Origin: a virus
Reading direction: 5' to 3' (one strand)
Virus record (IMG/VR): IMGVR_UViG_3300023184_009494
Coordinates: 1-55,522 of that record
DNA length: 55,522 bases
Below, in pieces: positions 9,991-51,219 of this stretch. The position numbers were made by a program, and so were the translations under genes. The notes below the pieces were generated by a model, which had not been told where the DNA came from, searched no databases, and saw only the letters and a program-made list of their open reading frames with translations. Each line of letters opens with the position of its first letter. The first letter of the stretch is position 1.

Positions 9991-10458
9991 TCAAATTGCA
10001 TATAAAACTATTTGAAGACGCTTATTTTTAACTTGAAGTGCTGAAATATTATATGAAATTGTAATCTTAATGGTTGCTGTATTTTTATTTTCATTTCTAT
10101 CTGTAGTAGAAGAGAAATCTTCTAAATCAATGAAAGGCATCCACGTTTCAACGGCCGTTTTTATTCTTGCTATTGCCTCATTGTCAAAATCATCTTGAGA
10201 TACAAGCTCAGTTGTAATTGGCTTTAAGTTTGCTCCAAATTTATAAATTCCAAGCCTTTCACCCCAATTTGTTAGCAATAAATTTCTAAGATTATCTGCA
10301 AATTGACTTTCAAGACTATAGTTCATAGATAGAATACCTTCAGTAGTTCCTAGCTGAAGTGGCGTCTTTATACCGTAAGGAATTTGAGTAGCTTTTAAGG
10401 TCTCTAGCGCTATTTGCTCTTGAGTTTTTCCTACGCTTTTAAAACTATAAGACGACAT
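9991..10458 (-). CDS. Baseplate wedge subunit, gp25-like (GPW/gp25 family)
   Basis: 155 aa, slightly longer than T4 gp25 (132 aa). Family signatures are visible: an early IKTPLQLG segment, the LESQFADNLRNLLLTNWGER block (gp25 and VgrG-associated TssE proteins have the same N-[LI]xxLLxTxxGER core), then the helix ending FDNEAIARIKTAVETWMPF. The protein nucleates sheath assembly on the baseplate and bridges the gp6 ring to the tube. It stands immediately before the gp6-like gene, exactly as in T4. It is set off from the preceding gene by 63 bp, one of the larger gaps in this block, so a local promoter is possible. Confidence 0.88.
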   Translation of the reverse strand: MSSYSFKSVGKTQEQIALETLKATQIPYGIKTPLQLGTTEGILSMNYSLESQFADNLRNLLLTNWGERLGIYKFGANLKPITTELVSQDDFDNEAIARIKTAVETWMPFIDLEDFSSTTDRNENKNTATIKITISYNISALQVKNKRLQIVLYAI

Positions 10459-10521
10459 AATTGTAAATATAACATCGCAAGACTACAGGCATGACAATTA
10501 TTATGTTCAGATATATCATAT

Positions 10522-13191: not shown

Positions 13192-14088
13192 TCAGGATTT
13201 TTTAACATCAATCTTAATTTTTTTATAATGACGCTTTATTGATTGCATCGTTGTGGTCAGTTGTTTTGGGCTTAATCCGGATAATTCTCTCATATACAGA
13301 AGTATTGCACCCTTGTTTAGAAGATCAACTTCATCAATATTTTCAAATATTGTAATAATTGAGTTTATGCAAGTTAGTTCATTTTCCGTCTTTATCTTTG
13401 TTCTAATGTCATAAAGCAAGTTTAGCGTTGTTTCAACAGATGATGTTGCATCAAGAATATCGTCTTGAGACGGAATAGATCCATAGTCTTCAACTATCAT
13501 ATTTTCGTATGATGTAAGACCTGCAGGGTCATCAATGCTGACATTTCTTTTTAGCTTTTGAGCCTTTTGCTTTGTTCTGATAATTAGCCAATTCTTTGCT
13601 ACAACATTAAAATATGAAAAAGCATTTGTACCTCTGCCTGAGTCAAACTTGTGTATTGTTTCAAAGAGAAAATTGACACAATCAATTTTTAGATCATCAT
13701 ATGAATCATGTATACCTGTAAATTTATGTATATTAATTAGATTTTCAACTAATTTTTCAAATGCTGGAAGTATGTCATTCACATAAATTCCATCTCTGAT
13801 TTTTTTTATAGTTTCTTTTTGAAACGAGACAATTGCATCTTGAGTTCCAGCATGGAAATATAATTTTATATTAGACTTTAAGTGTTTTGCTTCGGCATCT
13901 TGTTCAGGAGTAATTTTTTCAGCTTCAGCTGGTATTTCAATTTCATCTTTAGCTACTTCGGTCTTTACTTTAATTTCGGCAACAACAGGAGTTTCTTCCT
14001 TTTTTTGAACATCAACAATCTTAGTTCTTGTTCTTTTTAGCTTCTTTGGAGCAGTTGTGTTTTTCGGCTCTATGCTTGTATTGGTCAT
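13192..14088 (-). CDS. Late-transcription sigma factor, gp55-like
   Basis: 298 aa, longer than T4 gp55 (185 aa). The first 70 residues are a Lys/Glu/Pro/Thr-rich, probably disordered extension. Residues about 120-185 hold the region-2-like core: a helix with SYDDLKIDCVNFLFETIHKF, then DSGRGTNAFSYFNVVAKNWL and a basic segment KQKAQKLKRNVSIDD. The F-D-x2-RG-x4-FSYF pattern is the gp55-type equivalent of sigma region 2, which binds the beta-prime coiled coil and late promoter DNA. Residues about 250-290 (ELSGLSPKQLTTTMQSIKRH) look like a weak C-terminal helix-turn-helix. It likely recruits host RNA polymerase to late, virion-gene promoters. The ATG overlaps the stop of the membrane-protein gene before it. 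Confidence 0.8.
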   Translation of the reverse strand: MTNTSIEPKNTTAPKKLKRTRTKIVDVQKKEETPVVAEIKVKTEVAKDEIEIPAEAEKITPEQDAEAKHLKSNIKLYFHAGTQDAIVSFQKETIKKIRDGIYVNDILPAFEKLVENLINIHKFTGIHDSYDDLKIDCVNFLFETIHKFDSGRGTNAFSYFNVVAKNWLIIRTKQKAQKLKRNVSIDDPAGLTSYENMIVEDYGSIPSQDDILDATSSVETTLNLLYDIRTKIKTENELTCINSIITIFENIDEVDLLNKGAILLYMRELSGLSPKQLTTTMQSIKRHYKKIKIDVKKS

Positions 14089-14390
14089 TTGTTGTCTTCT
14101 TTAACATCTAAGGAACCATAGAGCTTATTTGCAATTATAAGCACAGCATCTCGGCAACCAGAAATATCATTTAATAAATTTTTCACGACAGGATCGTCAA
14201 ACATTACATCAGTTTTTGAAGCAATGTCTATTTTTTGATGATATTCATCCAAAATATCAAGAGATTCTTCAATTTGAATTCCCATCTCTTCTAGTTTATT
14301 AAGCATATCAATGTTTCTTATAACGCTGACAGCAAGAAAAGCTGAAAGAACAACAATTATAATCATTAGAAATATAACAATAAAAATCAT
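14085..14390 (-). CDS. Small membrane-anchored protein, unknown
   Basis: 101 aa. Residues 1-24 form one strongly hydrophobic segment (MIFIVIFLMIIIVVLSAFLA), followed by a polar helical tail of about 75 residues with the segment DVMFDDPVVKNLLNDISGCR. An N-terminal anchor with a cytoplasmic coiled tail is the likely topology. The gene overlaps both neighbours by 4 bp (ATGA), linking the glycosyltransferase locus and the sigma gene in one transcript. I cannot name a family. Confidence 0.6.
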   Translation of the reverse strand: MIFIVIFLMIIIVVLSAFLAVSVIRNIDMLNKLEEMGIQIEESLDILDEYHQKIDIASKTDVMFDDPVVKNLLNDISGCRDAVLIIANKLYGSLDVKEDNK

Positions 14391-15556
14391 GTAATAAGCT
14401 TTCCTAGAACTTCATCATAAGATTTTGAAATTTCATTAAAAGAATATTTTTGACTTATTTTTTCCTTAAGCTCTTTTGCCCACTTCACTGGAATTTCATT
14501 TGAATTTCTAAATTTGACAACTTTCTTCTTAAAGTCTTCTTCTATGGGATTTGCCCATTTTGATTCTGTCATGAAGATCTTGTTGTCTACTCTTGAAGCA
14601 TGAATTTTTTCAAGCTTGTAGTCAATATCAATAAATTTTCCATGAGATAGAAAATCCAAATGTCCCGACCAATTAGTTGCAATAACTGGTAGACCAGAAG
14701 CAGCAGCTTCTAGGGTTGGTAAACCATAACCTTCGCCTCGAGTTAAGCTAATCAATGCTTTAATTTGAGGATGCTTATATAGAGAGGCGACCTCTGAATC
14801 ATTCATATCGCCATGAAGAAGATGAATTTTTGGAAGAGAACTTTTTCTTACTTCTTTCAATAGTGTACTTAGCATTTGAGTAACAAGTTTTCTGTCAATT
14901 TTTGTGTTTCTGCCCATATTAGTCTTTATAATAAGACCAACATCAGAATCATGTGCAAAAGTCTCACAGAACCACTTTATTGAATAAAAAATATTCTTTC
15001 TGTCATTTTCAGGGTTGTTTCCAGTTACTTGTCCGAAAAGAAGAAAGTTAAAAGGTGTAGAAAATTGAAGTTCATCGACTCTTGTTTTTTTTGTCTCTGA
15101 TATAGCATGTGAAAAAGACTCAGGTATTAAAAACATTGGAACGGTTACATTGCCCGTATTTTTAAAACTATTCTCAGTATGCTTTGAAGGAACAATTACT
15201 GCAGTCATTGAATTGCAACAATTTATCCATTCTGGATTGCACTTGTCTGTTTCAACACCAGCTGTAATTCCAACATTAACTTTAGCGAGCTTTGTATCCC
15301 ATTCATTTGGAAGTTGAAGCTGAATAGATGCATCATAAACATCACCAGATGGGTCCACGGTTTTTTCCATAATTTGTCCGATAAAACCACCATCTAAATT
15401 TTTATCAATTAACCATGGTGTATCTCCCCAAGGGAGAGCCTGGAAGTATGGGTCGATATCTGATCTTGAAAGCATCCATTTTGCAACTTGACGAGTATGA
15501 ACACCGTATCCACTCATTGTTAGAGATGGTCCTCTAAGAAGAACTCTTTTTTTCAT
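14387..15556 (-). CDS. Glycosyltransferase, GT-B fold (GT4-like)
   Basis: 389 aa, two-domain GT-B enzyme. The N terminus has a Rossmann-like start with a glycine-rich loop (RGPSLTMSGYGVHTRQVAKW). The C-terminal domain has the nucleotide-sugar-binding signature EGYGLPTLEAAASGLPVIAT followed by NWSGH, which contains the E-x7-E pair of retaining GT4 enzymes. It is the last of the glycosylation genes in the direction of transcription and overlaps the membrane-protein gene by 4 bp. It forms a tandem pair with the next GT4 gene. The acceptor is unknown; virion protein or host glycan are both possible. Confidence 0.8.
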   Translation of the reverse strand: MKKRVLLRGPSLTMSGYGVHTRQVAKWMLSRSDIDPYFQALPWGDTPWLIDKNLDGGFIGQIMEKTVDPSGDVYDASIQLQLPNEWDTKLAKVNVGITAGVETDKCNPEWINCCNSMTAVIVPSKHTENSFKNTGNVTVPMFLIPESFSHAISETKKTRVDELQFSTPFNFLLFGQVTGNNPENDRKNIFYSIKWFCETFAHDSDVGLIIKTNMGRNTKIDRKLVTQMLSTLLKEVRKSSLPKIHLLHGDMNDSEVASLYKHPQIKALISLTRGEGYGLPTLEAAASGLPVIATNWSGHLDFLSHGKFIDIDYKLEKIHASRVDNKIFMTESKWANPIEEDFKKKVVKFRNSNEIPVKWAKELKEKISQKYSFNEISKSYDEVLGKLIT

Positions 15557-16806
15557 AGTTCAGTCACTTTCCATGAGTCTCTGTCAAAATTTTCATCTTT
15601 CCAGTTATTCATTGTAGAGGTAAGAGTTTCATCCCAAAGTGAAACAACTTTATTCATATCATATTCTCTTTTCGCGTGCTCAGCTGCTCGAAGACCAATC
15701 TCTTCTCTTTTTTCAGGACCCATGTCGTACATCTTCATAAATGCATCAGCTAGACTTCTATGAGATACAAAATCTTCCCAAATAAAAGGAACCATTTGAT
15801 TTCCAACTAAAGATCTAACATCTGGATCAAGAGCGACACCGTAATGTTCACCAGTTACATGGTCTTCAACTTGACGAGTTAGTCCACCAGTCTTAATTGA
15901 AATAACTGGCTTTCCGCACATTTTTGCTTCAAGAATTGGTAATCCGAAACCTTCATTGGCACTTCTATTGACAATTGTATCACATACATTGTATAGAAAT
16001 TTCATTTCATTGAAACCAATTCGATCCTTTGAAAATACAACACTATCCTTTATTCCAAGAACATCAATGACGCTGTATAAGTTTGTTCCTTCTTGATCAA
16101 GTGGATCTGCATGCATAACAAAAGTTGCTTTTTGATGTCCGTGTTTCTTTTGTAGGTCTTCTAAAAACATCTTCCAAGAAACAAGAATATCACTTGGCAT
16201 CTTTCGACGGGCATTCCTGGAAACATAAAGTGCTGTAAAATGATCTGCTCGATGTTGCCCAAGAAGCGATGCTTTAAATTTTGCAGCCTCTTGCTTTGGA
16301 AGAGGGCTATAAAGCTCTGATGGTACAGCATGTGGAATATAATGCGTTTTATTAGGAAATCTTTCCTTTATCATTTCATATGTTGGATAATTGATACAAT
16401 TTATGAGATCTGTAGATTCATAAAGCGGTCTATTAAATTCTGGATATGGAGGGTTGTCCCACAAATGCCAATAAGCAATTGGACAAATTTGATGAATCTC
16501 ATCTTCCATTTCCCAAGCCCAGAGAAAGAATCTCGGGTCTGTAAATAGCATCAGAGCATCAGGTCGAAGTTGCGCCAATGTTTTTCTAAGAAGATTTTTG
16601 TCTCCAAAACCATTGGTAGGCTTGATTACAAAATCAGGATTTACTGCGACGGTTTCATAACTATCATGGCGAACTGCTCCGCCAAAACATTTAAAAGAAT
16701 ACTTTCCAGTGTTTATAAGGCCGTTTATTAGCCACCGCGCCTGGGTTCCTACGCCGCTCGTCGAAAGAGGGTGATCTGAAAGTAATAAAATTGTCTTTTT
16801 GCTCAT
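15553..16806 (-). CDS. Glycosyltransferase, GT-B fold (GT4-like)
   Basis: 417 aa. The N-terminal domain begins KKTILLLSDHPLSTSGVGTQ, with the same SG-x-G-x2-Q/R loop as the neighbouring 389-aa enzyme. The C-terminal domain has NEGFGLPILEAKMCGKPVIS followed by a GG-x-TRQVED loop, the GT4 E-x7-E motif. I use the ATG at 16806, which has an AGG ribosome-binding site in front, instead of an upstream in-frame TTG at 16824. It overlaps the 389-aa gene by 4 bp. The two enzymes probably act in sequence on the same glycan. The sugar donor cannot be read from sequence. Confidence 0.8.
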   Translation of the reverse strand: MSKKTILLLSDHPLSTSGVGTQARWLINGLINTGKYSFKCFGGAVRHDSYETVAVNPDFVIKPTNGFGDKNLLRKTLAQLRPDALMLFTDPRFFLWAWEMEDEIHQICPIAYWHLWDNPPYPEFNRPLYESTDLINCINYPTYEMIKERFPNKTHYIPHAVPSELYSPLPKQEAAKFKASLLGQHRADHFTALYVSRNARRKMPSDILVSWKMFLEDLQKKHGHQKATFVMHADPLDQEGTNLYSVIDVLGIKDSVVFSKDRIGFNEMKFLYNVCDTIVNRSANEGFGLPILEAKMCGKPVISIKTGGLTRQVEDHVTGEHYGVALDPDVRSLVGNQMVPFIWEDFVSHRSLADAFMKMYDMGPEKREEIGLRAAEHAKREYDMNKVVSLWDETLTSTMNNWKDENFDRDSWKVTEL

Positions 16807-16863
16807 TGAGCCTATATTACGCAAATTACAAATATTGTAATAAAAATAAGAAAAAGTTGTATT

Positions 16864-23782: not shown

Positions 23783-24463
23783 CTATCTTTCAACCCCCGT
23801 ACCTGTTGACCAATAATAAAGCCTTTCAGGTATGTTATAAAATCTCATTCCATTCTTGACAGATCTAATCCAAAGATCCCAGTCTTCCCACATCACTCTG
23901 CCTGCACTTAACCAGAATATTCCTGGTTTATTGTTTTCATTGTATCCACCCATCTTATTAAAAGATTTTTTTCTAAACATTATAGAGCCATGACACATCA
24001 TATTTTCACGATCTATTGAATTAGCAATGCTTTCGTGTGTCTGATATTGACCCGGGAGATAACAAGAGTCTTTAATTGTTCCATCTGACTGGTAGTCGGC
24101 AGCAAGTGTTCCAACGAAATCATATTCGGGATTGTCCTCAAAAAATTGAATTTGTTTCTCTAATTTTTTTGGATGATACTGATCGTCTGCATCTAATTGA
24201 GCAATGAAGTCATATTTTGACACTCTGACTCCAGTATTTCTGGCAATTGCGCCCGATGTTTTTCCTTCAAGGGTTATGAATCTAATGTCTAAATTGGACT
24301 TAATTGTACTGATAATATCTTTGTAATCAATGTAACAACCATTCAAGACACAAATTACTTCAAAATTTTTATATGTCTGACTTTCTAGTGATTTTATTGC
24401 TCGAAGAAGTAGATTGTGATGTTTCTCAGACGGTATATAAGCAGGAACAATTACTGATATCAT
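23783..24463 (-). CDS. Family 2 glycosyltransferase (GT-A)
   Basis: 226 aa, one GT-A domain. It opens MISVIVPAYIPSEKHHNLLL, then SLESQTYKNFEVICVLNG, and has the metal-binding DxD motif in DFIAQLDADDQYHPKKLE near residue 115. The C-terminal part includes HGSIMFRKKSFNKMGGY and EDWDLWIR, in which ED is the usual catalytic-base position of GT2 enzymes. It is expected to add one sugar by inversion. The gene overlaps the CgeB-like gene by 4 bp. Confidence 0.85.
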   Translation of the reverse strand: MISVIVPAYIPSEKHHNLLLRAIKSLESQTYKNFEVICVLNGCYIDYKDIISTIKSNLDIRFITLEGKTSGAIARNTGVRVSKYDFIAQLDADDQYHPKKLEKQIQFFEDNPEYDFVGTLAADYQSDGTIKDSCYLPGQYQTHESIANSIDRENMMCHGSIMFRKKSFNKMGGYNENNKPGIFWLSAGRVMWEDWDLWIRSVKNGMRFYNIPERLYYWSTGTGVER

Positions 24464-25311
24464 AGTAATTCTAAAAGATACTCTATTCTCTTGTCATATG
24501 TGTGGTTGCTAATTGTTCTTTTGTAACCTTTTTCTGCCAAATCAATTCTTTTTTGATCATGAGCTAGCAGTTCTTTTACTGATTCTATTAGCTTTTCATT
24601 TGAATCATATACAATTATTTCTTCACCTATTTTGAAAAGCTTTTCAATATCAGGGACATTGTTTGTCACCAAAGGTAATCCGCATGCAGTTGATTCAAAA
24701 ACTCTGTATGGTATGTCAATGTCGATAGATTTGTTGAGAGCAACTCTATAAGTTGAGATCTCATCTATCATTTTTTGACCAAGAATTTTTGTTGAAACTT
24801 TCACAGAAATATGATTTGACAGAGCTGAAAGCCATTGACTTCTGTCAGCTATGATGCTTCCACAGAACCCAACATCGTGTTTCTTTTCTAAAGATATCTT
24901 CTTAAACCACTCATCATCTACAGCATTTGGAAACCACACTGCTCTTTTTGTAAGTCCTTCAAAAAATCTAATATAGCTGCTTGTAGAATTTAACAGAAGA
25001 TCAATTTTTGATTTATGGCAGAAAAAACGATGTGAATGAAGAGCACAATGTGAGTCTATGCTCCAAAAAATTTTATATTTGTCAATATTTCCGAGATCAG
25101 GCATCCAACCAGTGTCGTAATTTTCCAAAGAGAGTATAACGTCAAAATCTTTTATGATGTCATGAAAAGGTATATTATAATTTTCGTGACCAAGACCCCA
25201 CACTGTATTTTCAACTCCTCGTCTCTTCAAAGACTTTGAAATTGAAAAACATTCTCTCATATGTCTATTTTCTTCATGCCTTCCATTTTCTTGAATTATT
25301 AGAAATTTCAT
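24460..25311 (-). CDS. CgeB-like glycosyltransferase (GT-B)
   Basis: 283 aa. The N-terminal half is a Rossmann-like domain with SLENYDTGWMPDLG and a histidine-rich segment (SHCALHSHRFFCH). The C-terminal half starts at HDVGFCGSI and contains IPYRVFESTACGLPLVTNNV followed by DIEKLF, the hallmark of the CgeB / Glyco_trans_1_2 domain. These proteins transfer sugars in spore-coat, capsule and phage loci. The 301-aa gene at 27156 has the same architecture and the two could be paralogues. It overlaps both neighbours by 4 bp. Confidence 0.75.
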   Translation of the reverse strand: MKFLIIQENGRHEENRHMRECFSISKSLKRRGVENTVWGLGHENYNIPFHDIIKDFDVILSLENYDTGWMPDLGNIDKYKIFWSIDSHCALHSHRFFCHKSKIDLLLNSTSSYIRFFEGLTKRAVWFPNAVDDEWFKKISLEKKHDVGFCGSIIADRSQWLSALSNHISVKVSTKILGQKMIDEISTYRVALNKSIDIDIPYRVFESTACGLPLVTNNVPDIEKLFKIGEEIIVYDSNEKLIESVKELLAHDQKRIDLAEKGYKRTISNHTYDKRIEYLLELL

Positions 25312-25964
25312 GAGATATGAATTCGAAGAACATCTAAGTGTTCTTTGACTGTTTCTTCGTTTTCATCAAAGACTTGTCCGACAAATTCCAAATTTGTTCT
25401 TGGCATAGGCCACGGCTTTTTTTCAAAGAAATCATCATTTACATGACTAGTATTTCTTACAATTGGATAAATAACTTCTTTCAAGAAATTTTGATCAACT
25501 TGCCAAAAATTTCCCTTTGTATATTTTTCAATTAATTTATTAATGTCTCTAAGAAGAGGGGCTCTTACTCCCCACATGCCACCCATTATAGGCGCTCCAT
25601 GCCAAGGATGATCTCGCATTATATGAAAAAGATTGCCAGATAATAACCATTCATTAACGGCTGCTGACTCTCTTAATGTAAGCCTTGAGTCAGTATCTCT
25701 GCTAATCATGGCTTCTACATCAGGATCGCTAGCGGCTTCAAATCTCCAAAACATGCCTGTCCAGTCACCTTCATTAGGCATAATGATAATTTCAGAATTA
25801 TTTTCTTGAAGTTGTCTTGTTATGTCTTTGTCAACATTTTTTGAAACATAAAACCTTGGTATCCATCCTGGGTATATTTCGCTAGCGATTTTTGAATTTT
25901 TTACAGCTCCAATTGTGTACTTAGGATTGTTGCCCCACAAACTAAATGCAATAATTTTTTTCAT
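25308..25964 (-). CDS. Putative glycosyltransferase, GT-A-like
   Basis: 218 aa. The start MKKIIAFSLWGNNPKYTIGA leads into a strand/helix series. A DxD-type motif is in EAMISRDTDSRLTLRESAAV near residue 90, and a conserved HPWHGAPIMGGMWG segment follows near 120, where GT-A enzymes bind acceptor. I recognise this general type from phage and algal-virus sugar loci but cannot name the substrate. The ATG lies within the last codons of a 37-codon small frame on the same strand. Confidence 0.6.
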   Translation of the reverse strand: MKKIIAFSLWGNNPKYTIGAVKNSKIASEIYPGWIPRFYVSKNVDKDITRQLQENNSEIIIMPNEGDWTGMFWRFEAASDPDVEAMISRDTDSRLTLRESAAVNEWLLSGNLFHIMRDHPWHGAPIMGGMWGVRAPLLRDINKLIEKYTKGNFWQVDQNFLKEVIYPIVRNTSHVNDDFFEKKPWPMPRTNLEFVGQVFDENEETVKEHLDVLRIHIS

Positions 25965-26055
25965 AGTTCAATCCCCATGCAGTACATTCGTGGGCGGTCT
26001 TGCTGTGGCGATCGCGGTATGCACAAGGCTTTCCTGTAGTTTCTATTCTTCTCAT
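25942..26055 (-). CDS. Possible 37-aa small protein
   Basis: A minus-strand frame beginning MRRIETTGKPCAYRDRHSKT and ending NYEKNYCI. It is supported by a strong ribosome-binding site (AAGAGGAAG, about 2-4 bp before ATG) in the 113-bp gap before the GT-A-like gene, and it overlaps that gene's start in another frame by about 23 bp. It has three Cys and two His, so metal binding is conceivable. It may equally be a leader peptide controlling translation of the downstream gene, or chance. Confidence 0.35.
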   Translation of the reverse strand: MRRIETTGKPCAYRDRHSKTAHECTAWGLNYEKNYCI

Positions 26056-26076
26056 GTCTTCCTCTTTCTTGTATGA

Positions 26077-27159
26077 TTAAAACTCGCAATTTTTGCTCCT
26101 AGCAACACTTAGGTAGAATTCTATTACTTTTTCAACGATTGTTTTTTGCTCAAAATTCGAGGTGGCAAAATTTTTAGCTTTGAAGGACATGTCACGTCTG
26201 ACATCTTGATCTGCTAGCGCCACCATGGCCTTATAGTATTCATTTGAGTCTTTTGCATAAAAGCCGCCGGTGCCTAACCACTCTATCTGACCATTTTTAC
26301 CAGCGATGTGCGTTATGACAGGCTTGCCATACATCATAGCTTGCGCGATGGCAGTACTACAAATTTCTCCATCAGAACGATAGTGCGCAAATACGTCTAT
26401 CGTCTTATGAAACCTTTCGATGTAACTGTCTTCGTTTGTGCAGTCTAAGAAAATTACGTCGCTCTCTAAGCCTAATTGTTGCACACAACGCCTTGTGTCA
26501 TCGCATCCTCCTAATAACAGATACTTGCTTCTCCATGTATAGTTCTTTATAAATGCTTTATACGCAATCAAAGAAATAGGAGTGAAGTTAGCAGGTCGGC
26601 CGATCCTACCAAAGACCAGCATGTCCTCAGACAATTGTAGGTCACTCCTAAGACATTTCAGGTCTTCGTAAGAAGTAGAAGGGCCCGGTATTGGGTTTGG
26701 TATCAGAACAGAGTTTTTATTTTCAGGCATCATTAAACATCTTCCAATGAATATTGTGCCGTCTAGATAAGGAGATGTGTCTCTGTAACCAAAGATGTTA
26801 GTCTCTACTTGAACAGGGCAGATCCTGCTCGTGAAGGGCCATTCGTAATATCCGCTCCGCGCGAAGTGAAGAATGTGTATATCGTTTTCTTTTGCGACAC
26901 GCCCTATGTCCTCAGTTAGAGGACGCCACCCTTCATTCGGACCGGTCTTTTGCAGTGATCTTTTGAACTGAACGAAATTACAGTTCAACAGAATTTCTTT
27001 TGCAGCTTGTAATCGATTGTGTTCGACAGTATCAGCATAAAGTATGCTGACCTTAAATCTAGGGTCTCGCTGCAGGATATCAGCAATTCTTTCATGAGAT
27101 CTCCAAGTCCCGGCAAAATCAATCTGATGAGAATAAAAAGCAACTTTAATTTTAGTCAT
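26077..27159 (-). CDS. Glycosyltransferase, GT4-like
   Basis: 360 aa. The N-terminal domain starts IKVAFYSHQIDFAGTWRSHE. The C-terminal domain starts around LVFGRIGRPANFTPISLIA and contains YRSDGEICSTAIAQAMMYGK followed by PVITH, the donor-binding helix of GT-B enzymes with the conserved acidic residue. The gene is less AT-rich than its neighbours (I count 45% GC in 26221-26280), hinting at a separate origin. It overlaps the next gene upstream by 4 bp. Confidence 0.75.
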   Translation of the reverse strand: MTKIKVAFYSHQIDFAGTWRSHERIADILQRDPRFKVSILYADTVEHNRLQAAKEILLNCNFVQFKRSLQKTGPNEGWRPLTEDIGRVAKENDIHILHFARSGYYEWPFTSRICPVQVETNIFGYRDTSPYLDGTIFIGRCLMMPENKNSVLIPNPIPGPSTSYEDLKCLRSDLQLSEDMLVFGRIGRPANFTPISLIAYKAFIKNYTWRSKYLLLGGCDDTRRCVQQLGLESDVIFLDCTNEDSYIERFHKTIDVFAHYRSDGEICSTAIAQAMMYGKPVITHIAGKNGQIEWLGTGGFYAKDSNEYYKAMVALADQDVRRDMSFKAKNFATSNFEQKTIVEKVIEFYLSVARSKNCEF

Positions 27160-28061
27160 AAAGTCTCTTCTAATTTTTTAATTAGTGACGCTACTCTTGA
27201 AGAACACATATGTTTCTTTCTAACAGCATTTTTTGCATTGTCTCCAATTTCAAGAGCTAGGTCAGGATTATCTAGCAGATGTTTGGCTTTTTTGACTGCG
27301 TCTTCTTTTCCGTCATACCAAATTATTTCTCTTCCTTCTACAAGAAGATCATAATATCGAGATGACTCTGCAGGTCTATCTGCCAACACACATCGGCCGA
27401 GAGCTGCACCTTCAAAAACTCTTCGTGTAATTTCTTTGTTCTTGCTTTCCTGAAATACTATTAGCCCAGAAGCAAGAAATTTCGCATGTTCGTCACCCCA
27501 TGCTCTTCTGTTGGCAAAATTCTTACCAAGTTTTTCACTCATATGTCTTGTGACTTCTCCTCTGTCTCCACATGTTGTAACACATATATTTTCCATAACA
27601 TTCATGTCTTTTGAATATTGTTCATCTATGGCAAATTGAGGCCACCATAAAGAATTCTTTCTGAAGACTTCTGAATACATTGAGAAACACCTGTAGTCAG
27701 GAGTCAATATTAAGTCAGAAGAATAAGCTTTTTTTACATGTGAATAATGTGATTGAGGCTCGTCGCCGGACTCATATACGAGTAATGTATTTGGAAAGTT
27801 ATTTTTGTTCCAAAATTGTCCTGTCCAGGGACCGTAATCTAATGCAAGCATAAATGCAGGTATAAATCCTGCGTTTATAAGACTAAATGCATCTTTTTCA
27901 GCATCAATTCTATAACTTCCAAGTGAATCATACATTGAGATTGTTTTAATCTCATAACCCCTTTCTCTTAGTTGATTGACAATAGCAGTTGAAGTATTGC
28001 TGGTGTCTTTGATGTCGTCTTCCCTGTAAGGATACAGAACTATTGCTTTATTGTTCATCAT
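27156..28061 (-). CDS. CgeB-like glycosyltransferase (GT-B)
   Basis: 301 aa. It starts with a short strand AIVLYPYREDDIKDTSNTST, has SGDEPQSHYSHVKKAYSSDL near residue 100, and a C-terminal CgeB-type domain with KEITRRVFEGAALGRCVLAD followed by RPAESSRYYDLLVEG. It shares the RVFE-x-A-x-G core with the 283-aa protein at 24460. A role in glycan assembly is likely; donor and acceptor are unknown. ATGA overlaps on both sides. Confidence 0.72.
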   Translation of the reverse strand: MMNNKAIVLYPYREDDIKDTSNTSTAIVNQLRERGYEIKTISMYDSLGSYRIDAEKDAFSLINAGFIPAFMLALDYGPWTGQFWNKNNFPNTLLVYESGDEPQSHYSHVKKAYSSDLILTPDYRCFSMYSEVFRKNSLWWPQFAIDEQYSKDMNVMENICVTTCGDRGEVTRHMSEKLGKNFANRRAWGDEHAKFLASGLIVFQESKNKEITRRVFEGAALGRCVLADRPAESSRYYDLLVEGREIIWYDGKEDAVKKAKHLLDNPDLALEIGDNAKNAVRKKHMCSSRVASLIKKLEETL

Positions 28062-28777
28062 AGATCGAAATTTTTTAATTTTCTATCAAGATAAATTTGA
28101 TGATCTGGGTCGCCCGGGATGCTGTTTTTTTTCCATACTTCATCATGCCCAAAGCTTTTTTGGGCAATAAATTCTGGGAGTATTTCTGAGAATTTTTGCA
28201 TTGCAGTTAGATCACTCATTACGACGTCTGGGTGCAAATGTCTGATAATTACTTGTTCATAAAAAGATTGAAGTCCTAGGGCATTTGCAACATCAGTAAA
28301 TTCTGCGTCACACCAAAAACTCTTATATTCAGGATGATAAATATAACCAAATCTGTCGTAATACTTTTTCCCTAGTATGCATAGCGTATTTAGGTCGCGG
28401 CGCCATCCGTCAAAAAACCACAGCACTCCATCAGTATCAGGATATTTTGTCTTCATTTCACTTCTTATTATATCATCATATCCTTTTACTTCAGGTATCA
28501 TGTCATCGCTAACAAGTACTAATATGTCAAATTTTTTGTTCTTCATGTCAGCATTAATTGCTTCAATCTTATTTTTTGAATTTCCAAAATTGACAGACAA
28601 ATTAGGAAAATTTTCGAGAACTGCAATGACTTCTTTGTTGTTCATATGTGTATCATCTTCGTCGACAGATATGACAAATTCAAAGTCTTTCCCTGACATC
28701 AGCTTATAATATGTCTCGAGAGCCCTAAAAAATTTAAGCGCGCGTCCCCTGGTTGGATATTTAAAGAGTATTTTCAT
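28058..28777 (-). CDS. GT2-like glycosyltransferase
   Basis: 239 aa. It opens MKILFKYPTRGRALKFFRAL (nucleotide-binding strand and PTRGR loop), has FEFVISVDEDDTHMNNKEV and a second acidic motif DILVLVSDDMIPEVKGY (DD at the metal site) near residue 92. The later DGVLWFFDGWRRDLNTLCIL is a typical acceptor segment. It is similar to phage-encoded GT-A proteins that lack the usual C-terminal helices. The substrate is unknown. Confidence 0.68.
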   Translation of the reverse strand: MKILFKYPTRGRALKFFRALETYYKLMSGKDFEFVISVDEDDTHMNNKEVIAVLENFPNLSVNFGNSKNKIEAINADMKNKKFDILVLVSDDMIPEVKGYDDIIRSEMKTKYPDTDGVLWFFDGWRRDLNTLCILGKKYYDRFGYIYHPEYKSFWCDAEFTDVANALGLQSFYEQVIIRHLHPDVVMSDLTAMQKFSEILPEFIAQKSFGHDEVWKKNSIPGDPDHQIYLDRKLKNFDL

Positions 28778-29502
28778 TTCTCTTCTCTATTCGTGCTAGT
28801 ATTTCTTCTATACAGATAAGGCTTCTCAAGAAGAATTGAAGTAGACTTAAGCCCCGCTGTAACTCTGAAGTTAAAATCAGAGTCTTCGCTTAATAGCGTT
28901 CTTATTCCCATTCTTGGTGGATTAAATCTAAAACCAATGTCCCATATTTTCTTAAGAAACATTGAACTGACTCCGGCTGTTTCAAAATTTCCTGTAAAGT
29001 AATGATTAATCCCAGGCGTTTCATAACCTTGAAGAACTATTTTTGATACTTCTTCTCCTGATACAATTTTTAAATTTTCAGGAGTTGTATCATTTTTAGC
29101 ATGAATGTTCAATTCATCAGGTGTCCAGCAAGAGATAAATCCACACAAATTGTGAACAGAATTTGTATCAACAAGAGTCTTAAATTGACTTTGTATTCTC
29201 CAAGAAAGTGAAAAGTCATCAGCGTCATGTGATGTACAAATTTTAGCATCTGTTGTAGAAAATGCAATATTTAAAGCGTTCCACTTTCCTTTATTTTTTT
29301 CTAATGATATAAGTCTAATTCTTTTATCATTTTTACTCTCGACAACATTCTTTACATTTAGATAATCTTCAGACCCATCATCTATTACAACAATATCAAG
29401 ATTTTCATAAGATTGCAATATTATGCTGTCTATAGATTGACTTAAATATTTTGAATGATTATAGTTGCAGATTGCAACACAGACTTTATAGTCACTGTTC
29501 AT
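28774..29502 (-). CDS. Family 2 glycosyltransferase (GT-A)
   Basis: 242 aa. The N-terminal VCVAICNYNHSKYLSQSIDS and SYENLDIVVIDDGSEDY are diagnostic for GT2 enzymes. The metal-binding motif is in TSHDADDFSLSWRIQSQFK near residue 93, and an LLSEDSDFNFRV segment near 205 supplies the ED catalytic pair. It overlaps both neighbours by 4 bp. Confidence 0.85.
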   Translation of the reverse strand: MNSDYKVCVAICNYNHSKYLSQSIDSIILQSYENLDIVVIDDGSEDYLNVKNVVESKNDKRIRLISLEKNKGKWNALNIAFSTTDAKICTSHDADDFSLSWRIQSQFKTLVDTNSVHNLCGFISCWTPDELNIHAKNDTTPENLKIVSGEEVSKIVLQGYETPGINHYFTGNFETAGVSSMFLKKIWDIGFRFNPPRMGIRTLLSEDSDFNFRVTAGLKSTSILLEKPYLYRRNTSTNREEK

Positions 29503-31783: not shown

Positions 31784-31890
31784 ATTAGCTTATCTCTTAT
31801 TTAAGCTTAATTTAAGAGTAACTAAATCCTAGTTAAAAGCTTAATTTAAGATATTTAAGAGAGAACTTACTAATACTTGGAGAGTTGTAC
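31784..31890. promoter_or_regulatory. Divergent control region with 15-bp direct repeat
   Basis: The only divergent gap between the long minus-strand run and the plus-strand block. AAGCTTAATTTAAGA occurs at 31803-31817 and 31837-31851, 34 bp apart (about three helical turns). The first copy lies in an imperfect palindrome, CTCTTATTTAAGCTTAATTT followed by AAGAG. CTTAAATA-like elements appear on the minus strand on both repeats, similar in spirit to T4 late TATAAATA boxes. A GGAG ribosome-binding site at 31879-31882 serves the plus-strand gene. Promoter or operator function is inferred from position. Confidence 0.55.
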
Positions 31891-35262: not shown

Positions 35263-35309
35263 ATTTGTAATTATGAAAACTTAATCAGCATTAGGTATAG
35301 TGTGAAGCT

Positions 35310-36962
35310 ATGCCACTTCATGAATATGAAAAGTATTTTCCTTTTCCTAGTATTCGACCTGAACAAAAAAAAGCAATAGAATTTGCTTTGGACTCTTATG
35401 AATCTGGGAAAAAGTATGTCATTCTAGAGCTCTCTACAGGTGTTGGTAAATCGGCTACAGGCATTACTATAGCACGATATATGGAAGCTCATGCTCCACC
35501 TGTAAGAAATGAAGATGGTGAGCTAATGACTGGCGCTTATGTCATTACAACTCAAAAGATTCTTCAAGAACAATATATGAATGATTTTGGTCCTCAGTCA
35601 GGGAAAGATTTGATAAGGACAATTAAATCATCAACAAACTATAGATGTAAATTTTATTCTGATCAGACTTGCTCTGAATCAAAAAGAGTACTTGCTAAAC
35701 TTGGTAAGCAGCTTAATGGAACTGAATTTCAGAAACAATGTAAAAATGAATGCACTTATAGTCTTGAAAAGCAAGATTTTATCAATTCGCCTATATCGAT
35801 AACCAATTTTTCTTATTTTTTGGCTGAAACAACTTATGCAGGAAAACTAGAACCAAGGGCTCTTCTTATCGTAGATGAGTGTCATAATACAGAATCAGAA
35901 ATTGGAAAATTTGTTGAAGTTACATTTTCTGAAAAATTTGCTCGAGATGCTCTAAAGTGCAAAATTCCTAAGCTTGATTCTCAGCAAGCTGTTTTTGATT
36001 GGATTAAATCAGGATATAAAAAGTCTCTTTCAAAGTATGTAAAAGATCTTGAAAAAAATCTTGCAAAACTTTCTGGAGACATTGAAGGTTATGGCGATTA
36101 TTCAAAACAATATGAGATGCTAGAGAAGCATATTGGAAAAATTGAACAATTTGTCGAAGTATACAAAGAAGATAATTGGGCTATGAATATTGTGTACCCA
36201 CAAGAAGGAAACAGGCGTGGGGCAAGAAAATTCGAATTTAAACCAATTGATGTTTCTCTTTACAGTCAAAAGACTTTTTTTAGAAATGGTGCTAGACTTC
36301 TTATGATGTCAGCAACCGTTGTTGACAAAGATGTTTTCTGCGCATCTATTGGATTGCCTGCAAGTGAAGTAAGTTATCTTAGAATTCCTTCGCCATTTCC
36401 TGTCAAAAATAGACCAATTCATTGTCTGCCTGTCGGAAGCATGTCAAAAGATTCAATTGATAAATCTCTACCAGTTCTTGTAGAAGCCATTAAAATGCTA
36501 ATGGAGAAACATCCAAATGAAAAAGGAATTATTCATTCAACAAATTATAAGATTTCAAAATATCTTCAAGAAAATATAAAATCTAATAGAATTCTATCTC
36601 ATGATTCTTCAAATAGAGATATAGTTTTAAAAAAGCACATTGAATGCTCTGAGCCAACTATTTTGCTTAGTCCTTCTATGATGGAAGGAGTAGATCTTGC
36701 TGATAAATCAAGTAGATTTCAAATATTGTGTAAAATCCCATTTCCTTATCTTGGAGATCTTGTTATTAAGAAAAGAATGGAGCGCAATAAGCTGTGGTAT
36801 CCTTATATGACTGCCAAATTAATCATTCAATCTTTTGGAAGATCAATCAGAAATGAAAAAGATTATGCCGTCTCATATATATTAGATTCAGATTGGCAAA
36901 GATTCTATTCAAGAAATATTACCATGTTTCCAGAAGAGTTTAGGCAGTCATTCACGTCATAG
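35310..36962 (+). CDS. DinG/XPD-type superfamily 2 helicase with probable Fe-S cluster
   Basis: 550 aa. Walker A is LSTGVGKSATG at residues 41-51 and motif II is IVDECHNTES with DECH at 189-192. Between them four Cys (113, 121, 144 and 148) in YRCKFYSDQTC and QKQCKNECTY match the Fe-S insertion of XPD/DinG enzymes. Motif III is LLMMSAT near residue 335, motif V SPSMMEGVDLADKSSRF near 455, and motif VI IIQSFGRSIRNEKDYA near 510. It is likely a 5'-3' DNA helicase for replication-coupled repair or recombination. T4 uses Dda/UvsW in comparable roles, but this is a different family. Initiates 47 bp after the ClpP stop. Confidence 0.85.
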   Translation: MPLHEYEKYFPFPSIRPEQKKAIEFALDSYESGKKYVILELSTGVGKSATGITIARYMEAHAPPVRNEDGELMTGAYVITTQKILQEQYMNDFGPQSGKDLIRTIKSSTNYRCKFYSDQTCSESKRVLAKLGKQLNGTEFQKQCKNECTYSLEKQDFINSPISITNFSYFLAETTYAGKLEPRALLIVDECHNTESEIGKFVEVTFSEKFARDALKCKIPKLDSQQAVFDWIKSGYKKSLSKYVKDLEKNLAKLSGDIEGYGDYSKQYEMLEKHIGKIEQFVEVYKEDNWAMNIVYPQEGNRRGARKFEFKPIDVSLYSQKTFFRNGARLLMMSATVVDKDVFCASIGLPASEVSYLRIPSPFPVKNRPIHCLPVGSMSKDSIDKSLPVLVEAIKMLMEKHPNEKGIIHSTNYKISKYLQENIKSNRILSHDSSNRDIVLKKHIECSEPTILLSPSMMEGVDLADKSSRFQILCKIPFPYLGDLVIKKRMERNKLWYPYMTAKLIIQSFGRSIRNEKDYAVSYILDSDWQRFYSRNITMFPEEFRQSFTS

Positions 36963-37014: not shown

Positions 37015-37221
37015 ATGTCAGATAATGCAATTCTATTAAAGTGGTCTGAAATAAAGTCTCTTGTTGAGTCGCTTGAAGTTGATGTAGCAAAGAATGCTCG
37101 CGGCGTTGCCGCCGCAGGAGTTAGAGCAAGAAAAGGCCTAAGGCTTCTTCAGGCAACTGCGAAGCAACTTGTAAAACTTACTCTTGAGGCTGATAAAACA
37201 GTCTCACCTGACAAGGAATGA
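37015..37221 (+). CDS. Histone H1-like (Hc1-type) DNA-binding protein
   Basis: 68 aa. The pattern WSEIKSLVESLEVDVAKNA, then AAGVRARKGLRLLQATAK and QLVKLTLEADK resembles the Hc1/bacterial histone-H1-like family (EELKxLVxSLExD, AAGxRxRKxxxxLKxLA). It is rich in Lys, Arg, Ala and Val and should form a helical, DNA-binding protein. It could compact phage DNA or displace host nucleoid proteins. It has its own strong ribosome-binding site and is followed by a stem-loop. The call rests on a short pattern and is moderately secure. Confidence 0.6.
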   Translation: MSDNAILLKWSEIKSLVESLEVDVAKNARGVAAAGVRARKGLRLLQATAKQLVKLTLEADKTVSPDKE

Positions 37222-37292: not shown

Positions 37293-37628
37293 ATGAGACA
37301 AGAAGAAAGACAGCGGCGCGTCATTGCATACAAACAAGAACAGGAAGCACTACAGCCTCAGGTGCAGCAATTACAACCTGCTGTTATATATGAAAGAAAA
37401 GTCGAAGAGGCTGTTGTAGTAGACGATAAAAAGGCTAAAATAGAAGAAGTTTTAGAATATGCAAATAATGTTTCTGAAATAGAAACTAATTTGAGCAAAG
37501 AAGAATCTTTAGAAACAGTTGTTGAGACTGTTTATGAGCTTGAAGAAAAGAAAGAGCTAGCTGAAGTTTCAGTTTCAAGTGAAACTTCATTAATTGATGA
37601 AAAAACAAAAAAGAAAAAGAAGACTTAA
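37293..37628 (+). CDS. Acidic low-complexity protein, unknown
   Basis: 111 aa, dominated by Glu, Val, Lys and Gln. It begins MRQEERQRRVIAYKQEQEAL and ends with a Lys run (DEKTKKKKKT). Helical or disordered, no membrane segment. It has an AGAGGA ribosome-binding site. The stop overlaps the stop of the opposite-strand region-4 gene by 4 bp, so the two genes converge without a gap. The alternation of acidic centre and basic ends is notable beside an H1-like gene; no function is assigned. Confidence 0.5.
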   Translation: MRQEERQRRVIAYKQEQEALQPQVQQLQPAVIYERKVEEAVVVDDKKAKIEEVLEYANNVSEIETNLSKEESLETVVETVYELEEKKELAEVSVSSETSLIDEKTKKKKKT

Positions 37629-37888
37629 AGGATAAAGTTTCTTATTTTTTGGTAAATATTCTTTTCAATTTGACAGATTCTCATTCTTGTCAATCCGTAT
37701 ATTTTTCCAATTTCACGCAATGTTAGTGGACCTTTTTGCGTTGTAATTAAGACGCAATTTTTACCTATTGGATGATTTATCCACTGTTTACAACTTTGTC
37801 TTTGACATGTTGACTCATATTTTTCAACAGCTTCATAACAGGTGGTTTGAATAACTTTCAAATTAGTCTTTTGTTTAGATTTATGCAT
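37625..37888 (-). CDS. Stand-alone sigma-70 region 4-like protein
   Basis: 87 aa. Residues 53-80 (GPLTLREIGKIYGLTRMRIC followed by QIEKNIYQKIR) reproduce the region-4.2 helix-turn-helix of sigma-70 (TLREIGxxxGLSRERVRQIE). Residues 17-45 carry four Cys (17, 28, 33 and 45: YESTCQRQSCKQW and GKNCVL), probably a zinc-stabilised flap-binding part, with a fifth Cys at 72 inside the helix-turn-helix. No region 2 is present. It is encoded alone on the minus strand among plus-strand genes, so it has separate timing. Together with the gp55-like region-2 factor it could make a split sigma, as T4 gp55 and gp33 do functionally; that pairing is inference. A plain repressor-type HTH is the alternative. Confidence 0.8.
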   Translation of the reverse strand: MHKSKQKTNLKVIQTTCYEAVEKYESTCQRQSCKQWINHPIGKNCVLITTQKGPLTLREIGKIYGLTRMRICQIEKNIYQKIRNFIL

Positions 37889-37951
37889 CTTGTCTATGTG
37901 TTATATTTTGTCTAAGAACCAAGTTTGTACAAGAAACTTAAGAACAAACAC

Positions 37952-39349
37952 ATGAAAAAAACATATATCCTTGACACAAATGTACTTCTTAGCGATCCAA
38001 GCTTTTTCAAAAATTTTGATGATAATGATTTAATAATTCCAATTCTTGTTCTTGAAGAGCTTGATAAACACAAAGGTAGATCTGATGAAGTAGGAAGAAA
38101 TTGCCGAGAAGTAAGCAGAGCACTCGATGGATTAAGTGCAGGAAAAAACATACAAGAAGGAGTAGAATTGCCTCGAGGAGGAAAGCTAAAAATATCTTCT
38201 TGTACGGCAGGTTATAAAGATCTTCTTCCGCCTGAATTAATTCAAGGATCTTCTGTTGACAACATGATTATTGGTTTTGTTCTTCAACTAAGAGAGTCAA
38301 TACCCGACGCAATACTTGTTTCAAAAGATATAAATGTTAGAGTTAAATGCTCTTCTCTTGGAATACAAGCTGAAGACTATCTAAGCATTAGAGTTTCAGA
38401 CAATGTTGACTCTTTATATACTGGAGTAAAAGTTGTTGTTACGACTCAAGATGTAATTGATAATTTTTATCATGAAGAAAAATGCAATGTTGACGAAATA
38501 ATACAAGAAACAACTTATCCCAACCAGATCGTTGTTCTTAAGGCTGTTGACGTTGAAGGAAATACATTAAAATCTGCTCTATCAAGAAAAACAGCTGACA
38601 GCTCTCTCGTTCCTCTGCAAAAATACGATAATGTTTTTGGGATTAGATGCCGTAATAAGGAACAAACATTCTCAGTCGACCTTCTAATGAATCCAGAAAT
38701 CAAGCTAATAACGCTTACTGGACGAGCTGGTTGTGGAAAAACATTGCTTGCATTGGCTGCAGGATTAGATCAACTTCAATCAATTGGTCAAAATCCAGTT
38801 TATCAAAAACTAATTGTCTCCCGCCCGGTTCAACCCGTTGGTCGCGACATAGGTTTTCTGCCTGGAACTTTAGAAGAAAAGATGGAGCCATGGATTGCTC
38901 CAATTAGAGACAATCTTGAATTTCTTCTAGGTTCTTCTGGAAAGAAACAGAGTATGACATCTCAGACACCAAGAAAAAAGAAGTCAGAAGAATCTTCTGG
39001 CGGCTTTAAGGATCCTTATCTTGAACTAATGCAGCAAAAAGGACTTATTGAAATTGAAGCAATTTCTTTTATTAGAGGACGATCTATTCCAAATGCATTC
39101 ATGATAATTGATGAAGCACAAAATCTATCAATGCATGAACTAAAGACAATTATTACTCGAGTTGGAGAGAATACAAAAATTGTTCTAACGGGAGATATTG
39201 AACAAATTGACAATGTTCATGTAGATACTTTTACAAATGGTCTAACGTATGCTGTTGAAAAATTTAAAGAATATTCAATTGCAGGTCATGTAACACTTCT
39301 TAAGGGTGAACGAAGTGAGTTAGCAACTTTGGCATCAAAAATTCTTTAA
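37952..39349 (+). CDS. phoH: PIN-PhoH fusion protein
   Basis: 465 aa from ATG 37952; the frame is open from a TTG at 37925. The N-terminal PIN domain starts KKTYILDTNVLLSDPSFFKN (acidic residue Asp8) with LVLEELDKHKGRSDEVGRNC (Glu and Asp) near residue 40. The C-terminal PhoH ATPase has GRAGCGKTLLALAA at residues 257-270 (Walker A), VSRPVQPVGRDIGFLPGTLE and EKMEPWIAPI, then IDEAQN at 386-391 (Walker B). Phage PhoH genes are common in marine phages. PIN-PhoH forms in bacteria act as RNA helicase/ribonucleases. A role in RNA processing during infection is more likely than phosphate regulation. Its promoter must lie in the 63-bp divergent gap shared with the region-4 gene. Confidence 0.88.
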   Translation: MKKTYILDTNVLLSDPSFFKNFDDNDLIIPILVLEELDKHKGRSDEVGRNCREVSRALDGLSAGKNIQEGVELPRGGKLKISSCTAGYKDLLPPELIQGSSVDNMIIGFVLQLRESIPDAILVSKDINVRVKCSSLGIQAEDYLSIRVSDNVDSLYTGVKVVVTTQDVIDNFYHEEKCNVDEIIQETTYPNQIVVLKAVDVEGNTLKSALSRKTADSSLVPLQKYDNVFGIRCRNKEQTFSVDLLMNPEIKLITLTGRAGCGKTLLALAAGLDQLQSIGQNPVYQKLIVSRPVQPVGRDIGFLPGTLEEKMEPWIAPIRDNLEFLLGSSGKKQSMTSQTPRKKKSEESSGGFKDPYLELMQQKGLIEIEAISFIRGRSIPNAFMIIDEAQNLSMHELKTIITRVGENTKIVLTGDIEQIDNVHVDTFTNGLTYAVEKFKEYSIAGHVTLLKGERSELATLASKIL

Positions 39350-51169: not shown

Positions 51170-51219
51170 AAATCTTATAACTTATTTCAATGGCCATCTG
51201 TGCCATATTTAGGTAATCA

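What the first reader, a model, noticed from the sequence alone, without database searches (positions are those of the whole stretch)
37625..37888. Stand-alone sigma region 4 with a Cys cluster, possible partner of the gp55-like factor
The 87-aa protein contains only a region-4.2-like helix-turn-helix plus four or five Cys. A separate region-2 factor (gp55-like, 13192-14088) is in the same genome. T4 divides these functions between gp55 and gp33, but gp33 has no recognisable helix-turn-helix; here the flap/-35-binding part looks like true sigma region 4. The gene alone faces the opposite direction among plus-strand genes, suggesting separate timing.
Basis: partly seen in the sequence, partly recalled or inferred. 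Interest (0 to 1): 0.65.

Follow-up and report, generated by a model that had tools for sequence, protein, structure and literature searches.

The report
Phage stand-alone sigma region-4 protein
A large, uncultivated phage lineage carries a tiny separate copy of the part of a sigma factor that reads the upstream half of promoters; it travels with an unusual upstream promoter box, which suggests that these phages re-aim the host's RNA polymerase with a detached sigma piece, although that link is so far only a correlation.

Summary
ORF 37625-37888(-) has a true sigma-70 region-4.2 helix-turn-helix (Pfam E=3e-9) behind four invariant cysteines (C-x10-C-x4-C-x11-C). It belongs to an undescribed family with at least 202 relatives in IMG/VR and no full-length relative found in cultured phages. 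The recognition helix (TRMR[IV]CQ[IL]EK) is fixed. The gene is almost always the lone counter-oriented gene between PIN-PhoH and an Hc1-like gene.

The gp55-like factor co-occurs in 18 of 19 large records tested. The proposed partnership at late promoters is nevertheless not favoured. Late (structural) genes carry a single ATA[CT]TTA box with no -35 element. Flavobacterium phage immuto has the gp55-like factor and that late box but no region-4 protein.

Region-4-bearing phages also have a second promoter class before DNA-metabolism genes: -35 GTGHAAA, about 17 nt, then TAnnnT, often leaderless. It is at or near chance level in 12 phages without the protein. The changed helix residues (E585->M, R588->C) are those reported to read -33 G, the position altered in this box.

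Best guess: the protein replaces host sigma region 4 and reads GTGHAAA. The main rival is that the box reflects the unknown hosts' own sigma. Zinc binding, flap binding and DNA binding are inferred, not shown.

The parts
37625..37888 (-). stand-alone sigma region-4 protein, 87 aa
37637..37732 (-). region-4.2 HTH (residues 53-84), recognition helix LTRMRICQIEK
   Evidence: Pfam PF04545 E=3.2e-9; helix fixed in 79/79 loci fetched without using it
37754..37840 (-). four-Cys module (residues 17-45), C-x10-C-x4-C-x11-C, in the place of region 4.1; putative zinc site
   Evidence: Cys invariant in 74/74; zinc binding inferred only
37925..37932 (.). palindrome TTGTACAA between the region-4 gene and phoH; TTGWACA/TTATACA-like boxes recur upstream of the gene in many loci
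   Evidence: functional assignment inferred
37952..39349 (+). PIN-PhoH gene, neighbour on the opposite strand in essentially every locus
   Evidence: PF02562 E=2e-46, PF13638; synteny
37015..37221 (+). Hc1 histone-like small gene, conserved neighbour on the other side
   Evidence: PF07432 E=5e-10; synteny
13192..14088 (-). gp55-like factor: sigma region-2 domain plus conserved C-terminal helical domain
   Evidence: phrog_234 E=1.1e-5; A3; model
10464..10470 (-). late box ATATTTA exactly 12 nt before the start codon of the gene at 9991-10458
   Evidence: class defined
51205..51211 (+). late box ATATTTA 15 nt before the start codon of the gene at 51220
31851..31857 (+). possible late box ATATTTA 40 nt before the in-frame ATG of the gene listed at 31885
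   Evidence: weaker
35273..35301 (+). putative early/middle promoter ATGAAAA-N16-TATAGT before the helicase gene 35310-36962; GTG/TTG versions found at the same place in 34 of 73 relatives
   Evidence: the window copy is a weak match

Best explanation
The 87-aa protein is a detached sigma region 4: a C-terminal region-4.2 helix-turn-helix joined to a four-Cys, probably zinc-binding, module. Most likely it is made early or middle, docks where the host sigma region 4 sits on RNA polymerase (the beta-flap), and reads a phage-specific -35 box (GTGHAAA, minor form TTGWACA). The -10 (TAnnnT/TATAAT) would still be read by a sigma region 2, most simply that of the host sigma. It would thus steer host polymerase to the phage's DNA-metabolism promoters, while the gp55-like factor separately reads the -35-less late box ATA[CT]TTA. 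Shown: the family, the fixed helix, the synteny, the two promoter classes and their association with the two proteins. Inferred: zinc, flap binding, DNA binding, timing, and which factor reads which box.
For: Sigma70_r4 in 67/67 members. Recognition helix fixed in 79/79 loci without ascertainment on it, as expected if one DNA code is read. GTGCAA sits at exactly -36 of the start codon 34 times against ~0.8 per position. An EM over genes with TAnnnT at -12 gives G-36 T-35 G-34 [ACT]-33 A-32 A/C-31 A-30. The leaderless two-box pattern occurs 218 times in 3.0 Mb of 14 region-4 records against 14 in 3.2 Mb of 11 phages without it (reversed pattern near zero). The marine region-4 clade shows GTG[CT]AAA-N16-TATAAT, mainly in G071, G073 and G041, with the reversed control at zero. 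Canonical TTGACA is not enriched. Genes with this promoter include a DNA helicase, GroEL, polynucleotide kinase, SbcC/D-like and nucleotidyltransferases. The box is preserved before the helicase gene in 34 of 73 loci. Sigma70 E585 and R588 read -33 and R584 reads -31 (PMC2613000); here E585->M and R588->C, R584 and Q589 kept, and -33 is almost never G (1 of 76). Immuto has the gp55-like factor and late box but neither region-4 protein nor GTGHAAA.
Against: Association only: the lineage shares ancestry and perhaps related hosts, so the host's own sigma could read GTGHAAA. Hosts are unknown. If the region-4 gene's own promoter is of this class, a host factor must read it at least weakly at first. 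Region 4.1, which helps hold the flap, is not recognisable. The AlphaFold model is moderate (pLDDT 78.6, pTM 0.47) and has no Foldseek match. The window itself has no leaderless GTGHAAA match. Some marine region-4 records (G017, G029, G036, G072) show few or no boxes.
Confidence: 0.4

Rival explanations
1. GTGHAAA is simply the -35 consensus of the hosts' own sigma. The region-4 protein does something else, such as binding the beta-flap as a gp33-like coactivator of gp55-like late transcription with non-specific upstream DNA contact.
For: Always found with the gp55-like factor in large records. gp33 (phrog_254) not detected in 14 of those records while T4 rings at 1.6e-33, so the flap seat appears free. 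T4 gp33 clamps the flap like region 4 and needs no -35 (PMC7892883; PMC2988020). Early genes must be read by host polymerase at first.
Against: Immuto, Mel-JY01 and LR756508 have the gp55-like factor without the protein, and immuto still has the late box. A fixed recognition helix is unexpected for a non-specific contact. No clamp-binding tail is visible on the protein, and no gp45-type clamp passed the family cut-off in 17 region-4 records (one weak hit in G009).
Confidence: 0.25
2. It is an anti-host factor: it occupies the beta-flap or the -35 region and displaces host sigma region 4, shutting off host promoters, with no -35 of its own.
For: Small and apparently not under the late box (ATA.TTA upstream in 1 of 75). 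Known phage precedents act on sigma region 4 (AsiA, summarised in PMC7824862 and PMC11598898).
Against: The invariant DNA-reading helix argues for a DNA target. A specific non-TTGACA -35 class accompanies it.
Confidence: 0.13
3. It is an ordinary zinc-HTH regulator that binds the palindromic TTGTACAA region between itself and phoH and controls that divergent pair.
For: A TTGTACAA-type box recurs in the intergenic region in many loci, and the gene pair is always adjacent on opposite strands.
Against: The box also lies 36 nt before start codons elsewhere, in a promoter-like position. The protein resembles sigma region 4 rather than repressors.
Confidence: 0.12

Closest known systems
Sigma-70 region 4.2 (PF04545), e.g. 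RpoD/SigA, FliA/WhiG
   Same: HTH over profile positions 19-50, E=3e-9; R584 and Q589 equivalents kept
   Different: No region 2, 3 or recognisable 4.1; four-Cys module in front; E585->M and R588->C
T4 gp33 (PF16805, phrog_254)
   Same: Small separate protein in phages that also carry a gp55-type factor; the beta-flap seat is the expected site
   Different: gp33 is not structurally related to region 4 (PMC7892883) and does not recognise DNA sequence (PMC2988020); no sequence relation found
T4 AsiA/MotA middle-promoter switch
   Same: Works-like proposal: host sigma keeps the -10 while a phage factor changes the upstream contact
   Different: Two unrelated proteins in T4; here one true region-4 domain. 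Comparison rests on papers and general knowledge, not tested here
SPO1 gp33/gp34 late pair
   Same: Two-protein phage transcription specificity
   Different: SPO1 gp33 is Phage_Gene33 with no Sigma70_r4 hit; gp34 carries region 2 and a weak region-4 hit
Bacillus subtilis SigO-RsoA split sigma
   Same: A sigma factor divided between two proteins, one of them about 9 kDa (PMC10141391)
   Different: Cellular and not tested here for homology
Minimal HTH-only sigma factors of group 2 jumbo phages (PMC7824862)
   Same: That paper reports jumbo-phage sigma factors with just the single HTH
   Different: The Cys module, this family and its promoter code are not described in the passages read; no full-length relative found in cultured phages

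Membership tests
Sigma-70 region 4 (PF04545) | significant match to the region-4 profile | tested here: met
   67/67 members, window E=3.2e-9 over the cut-off
Sigma-70 region 4 (PF04545) | region 4.1 present | tested here: not met
   match starts at profile position 19; the Cys module lies there instead
Sigma-70 family factor | region 2 for core binding and -10 melting in the same chain | tested here: not met
   87 aa with region 4 only
Sigma-70 region 4 (PF04545) | binds the RNA polymerase beta-flap | not testable with these tools
   no complex prediction or assay available
Sigma-70 region 4 (PF04545) | reads a -35 element | tested here: inconclusive
   a distinct -35 class co-occurs with the protein; binding not shown
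T4 gp33 coactivator (PF16805/phrog_254) | sequence match to the family | tested here: not met
   no hit for the window protein; T4 gp33 hits its own families
T4 gp33 coactivator (PF16805/phrog_254) | C-terminal sliding-clamp-binding tail | tested here: not met
   by eye, the protein ends in the helix (...KIRNFIL) without an acidic-hydrophobic tail
gp55-type late sigma (phrog_234), window 13192-14088 | match to the late sigma family over region 2 | tested here: met
   E=1.1e-5; found in 29 of 45 records
gp55-type late sigma (phrog_234), window 13192-14088 | single-box late promoter without a -35 | tested here: met
   ATA[CT]TTA, no -35 information
Zinc-binding protein | metal bound by the four Cys | not testable with these tools
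   Cys invariance only

The most novel reading that the evidence does not exclude
A phage lineage rewrites the -35 code of its hosts' RNA polymerase with a free-standing sigma region 4 that replaces the host's region 4 while the -10 stays under host-sigma control, giving a GTGHAAA, often leaderless, promoter class separate from the gp55-type late class.
Probability: 0.33. Interest if true: 0.82.

Novelty: new variant of a known kind. Interest (0 to 1): 0.62.

Why it matters
The 2010 review of T4 late transcription asked why the region-2-like and region-4-like parts are always separate genes (PMC2988020). Here the detached part is a true region 4 with a fixed and altered reading helix, and the phages carry two cleanly separated promoter classes. 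If the link holds, sigma's -10 and -35 readers are interchangeable modules in nature, and a small protein could be used to re-target RNA polymerase. The two promoter codes also allow gene timing to be predicted in a large uncultivated phage lineage.

Tried and rejected
Foldseek of the region-4 model against the PDB gave no usable match. Profile comparison of the gp55-like C-terminal domain with the region-4 family found no relation, and the Foldseek support for it as a sigma-like domain is weak (best E=0.03). A -35 element at late boxes was sought at fixed and variable spacing: only mild A/T preference. Canonical TTGACA promoters were not enriched upstream of genes. gp33, gp45-type clamp and bacterial beta clamp were not found in the region-4 records, apart from one weak gp45 hit in G009; these families diverge fast, so the negatives are soft. 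A region-4-like hit in G049 was a chance match. Cultured-phage hits S-B68 and Vibrio 207E48.1 lie in larger proteins and are not the same family.

Full report
Observation. The 87-aa ORF at 37625-37888(-) is real. It carries a bona fide sigma-70 region-4.2 HTH (PF04545, E=3.2e-9, residues 53-84), and all solved-structure hits are sigma region 4. Region 4.1 is not recognisable; in its place lies C17-x10-C28-x4-C33-x11-C45. No other region-4 match exists in the 55.5-kb record. No NCBIfam or PHROG model describes the whole protein.

Family. IMG/VR scans found at least 202 relatives. The four Cys are invariant in 74/74 distinct sequences. Because one scan used the recognition helix as bait, I repeated it with a bait outside the helix: 79/79 loci keep TRMR[IV]CQ[IL]EK, so the fixed helix is not an artefact of the search. 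tblastn in 50,697 phage records gave HTH-only matches to other sigma-like proteins and no full-length relative. The only bacterial-genome locus is a phage-like stretch in a MAG.

Synteny. Across the roughly 80 loci examined, the gene lies beside a PIN-PhoH gene on the opposite strand, with the Hc1-like small gene on its other side and usually a helicase and ClpP-like block beyond; it is the counter-oriented gene of the block. Its upstream region carries the late box in 1 of 75 loci and instead often shows TTGTACA, TTGAACA or TTATACA boxes. Separate timing is therefore plausible, though not measured.

gp55-like factor. The protein at 13192-14088 matches the late sigma family (phrog_234). It is present in all 14 region-4 records of at least 100 kb, in G045 and in G070-G072; it was not found in the possibly incomplete G073: 18 of 19. 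The alignment and model show region 2 at about 80-181 and a conserved C-terminal helical domain at about 208-297. Foldseek aligns the whole chain with full-length sigma factors, weakly (best E=0.03). Conversely, immuto, Mel-JY01 and LR756508 have the gp55-like factor but no region-4 protein, even at E up to 10 (the same profile rings at about 1e-38 in carriers).

Late promoters. ATACTTA is found 46 times in sense, 6 in antisense, 3.9 expected upstream of genes. The broader ATA[CT]TTA box often starts 12 nt before the start codon and shows a purine preference at +12. Genes behind it include tail sheath, head-tail adaptor and baseplate wedge. No -35 element exists at fixed or variable spacing. 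In the window it sits at 10464-10470(-) and 51205-51211(+). Immuto shows ATA[CT]TTA 21 sense / 1 antisense. The late box therefore goes with the gp55-like factor and does not need the region-4 protein.

Second promoter class. Following the boxes upstream of the region-4 gene, I found a two-box promoter. GTGCAA lies exactly 36 nt before the start codon 34 times against a background of about 0.8, with TAnnnT at -12 to -7 and C at -1, i.e. apparently leaderless. An EM on genes with TAnnnT at -12, seeded only weakly with T-35, A-32 and A-30, gives G T G [ACT] A A/C A. The whole pattern occurs 218 times in 3.0 Mb of 14 region-4 records and 14 times in 3.2 Mb of 11 phages without the gene; a scrambled control pattern is near zero. 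Marine region-4 phages have a leadered version, GTG[CT]AAA-N16-TATAAT. TTGACA-N17-TATAAT is near chance in the region-4 records. Genes of this class include a DNA helicase, GroEL, polynucleotide kinase, SbcC/D-like and nucleotidyltransferases. The box is conserved before the helicase gene in 34 of 73 loci; the window copy, ATGAAAA-N16-TATAGT at 35273-35301, is a weak match, and the strict pattern is absent from the window.

Interpretation. A paper states that sigma70 E585 and R588 determine -33 and R584 determines -31 (PMC2613000). In the phage helix the first two are Met and Cys and R584 is kept, and the phage box avoids G at -33. This coherence, the fixed helix, the association across freshwater and marine clades, and the immuto control lead me to propose that the protein reads GTGHAAA. 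It remains a correlation: shared ancestry and unknown hosts could explain it, early promoters must be readable by host polymerase at first, and no binding has been shown. Of many patterns examined, those reported have very large effect sizes, but gene starts come from a simple ORF caller and no transcription start is measured.

Relation to known systems. T4 gp33 binds the beta-flap, is not structurally related to region 4 (PMC7892883) and does not recognise DNA sequence (PMC2988020). SPO1 gp33 is a different family. B. subtilis SigO-RsoA is a split cellular sigma (PMC10141391). A jumbo-phage survey already noted HTH-only minimal sigma factors (PMC7824862), so the kind is known; the Cys-bearing family and the promoter code are new to my reading.

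Noticed in passing
G001, G024, G025, G030, G035, G043 and others: A large class of apparently leaderless promoters: GTGHAAA at -36, TAnnnT at -12 and C at -1 of the start codon.
   Followed up: yes
L114 (Flavobacterium phage immuto): ATATTTA-type late box strongly enriched upstream of genes (21 sense / 1 antisense), extended as TATATTTAGGTAT.
   Followed up: partly
window 14387-16824 and 23783-29502: Glycosyltransferase-like and other sugar-related genes interrupt the structural block.
   Followed up: no
window 37015-37221: Hc1 histone-like small protein conserved beside the region-4 gene in essentially every locus.
   Followed up: partly
window 37293-37628: 111-aa Lys/Glu-rich ORF tail-to-tail with the region-4 gene, overlapping its 3' end by 4 bases; not among the recognised neighbours of the other loci.
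   Followed up: no
L108, L087, L103, L109, L112 (gp55-like C-termini): Several gp55-like proteins end in KFRLF, KFKLF or FDIF, resembling clamp-binding tails, but the window's version does not; no gp45 or beta clamp was found.
   Followed up: partly
G070:113661-114395 and G074 contig 5:101489-102202: gp55-like matches that each contain one in-frame stop codon.
   Followed up: no
L083, MAG Methylococcaceae TMED69: Phage-like stretch with the region-4, PhoH and Hc1-like genes binned in a bacterial MAG.
   Followed up: partly
W07 (Bacillus phage G): About 100 same-strand TTTACA-N17-TATAAT promoters, far above the control count.
   Followed up: no
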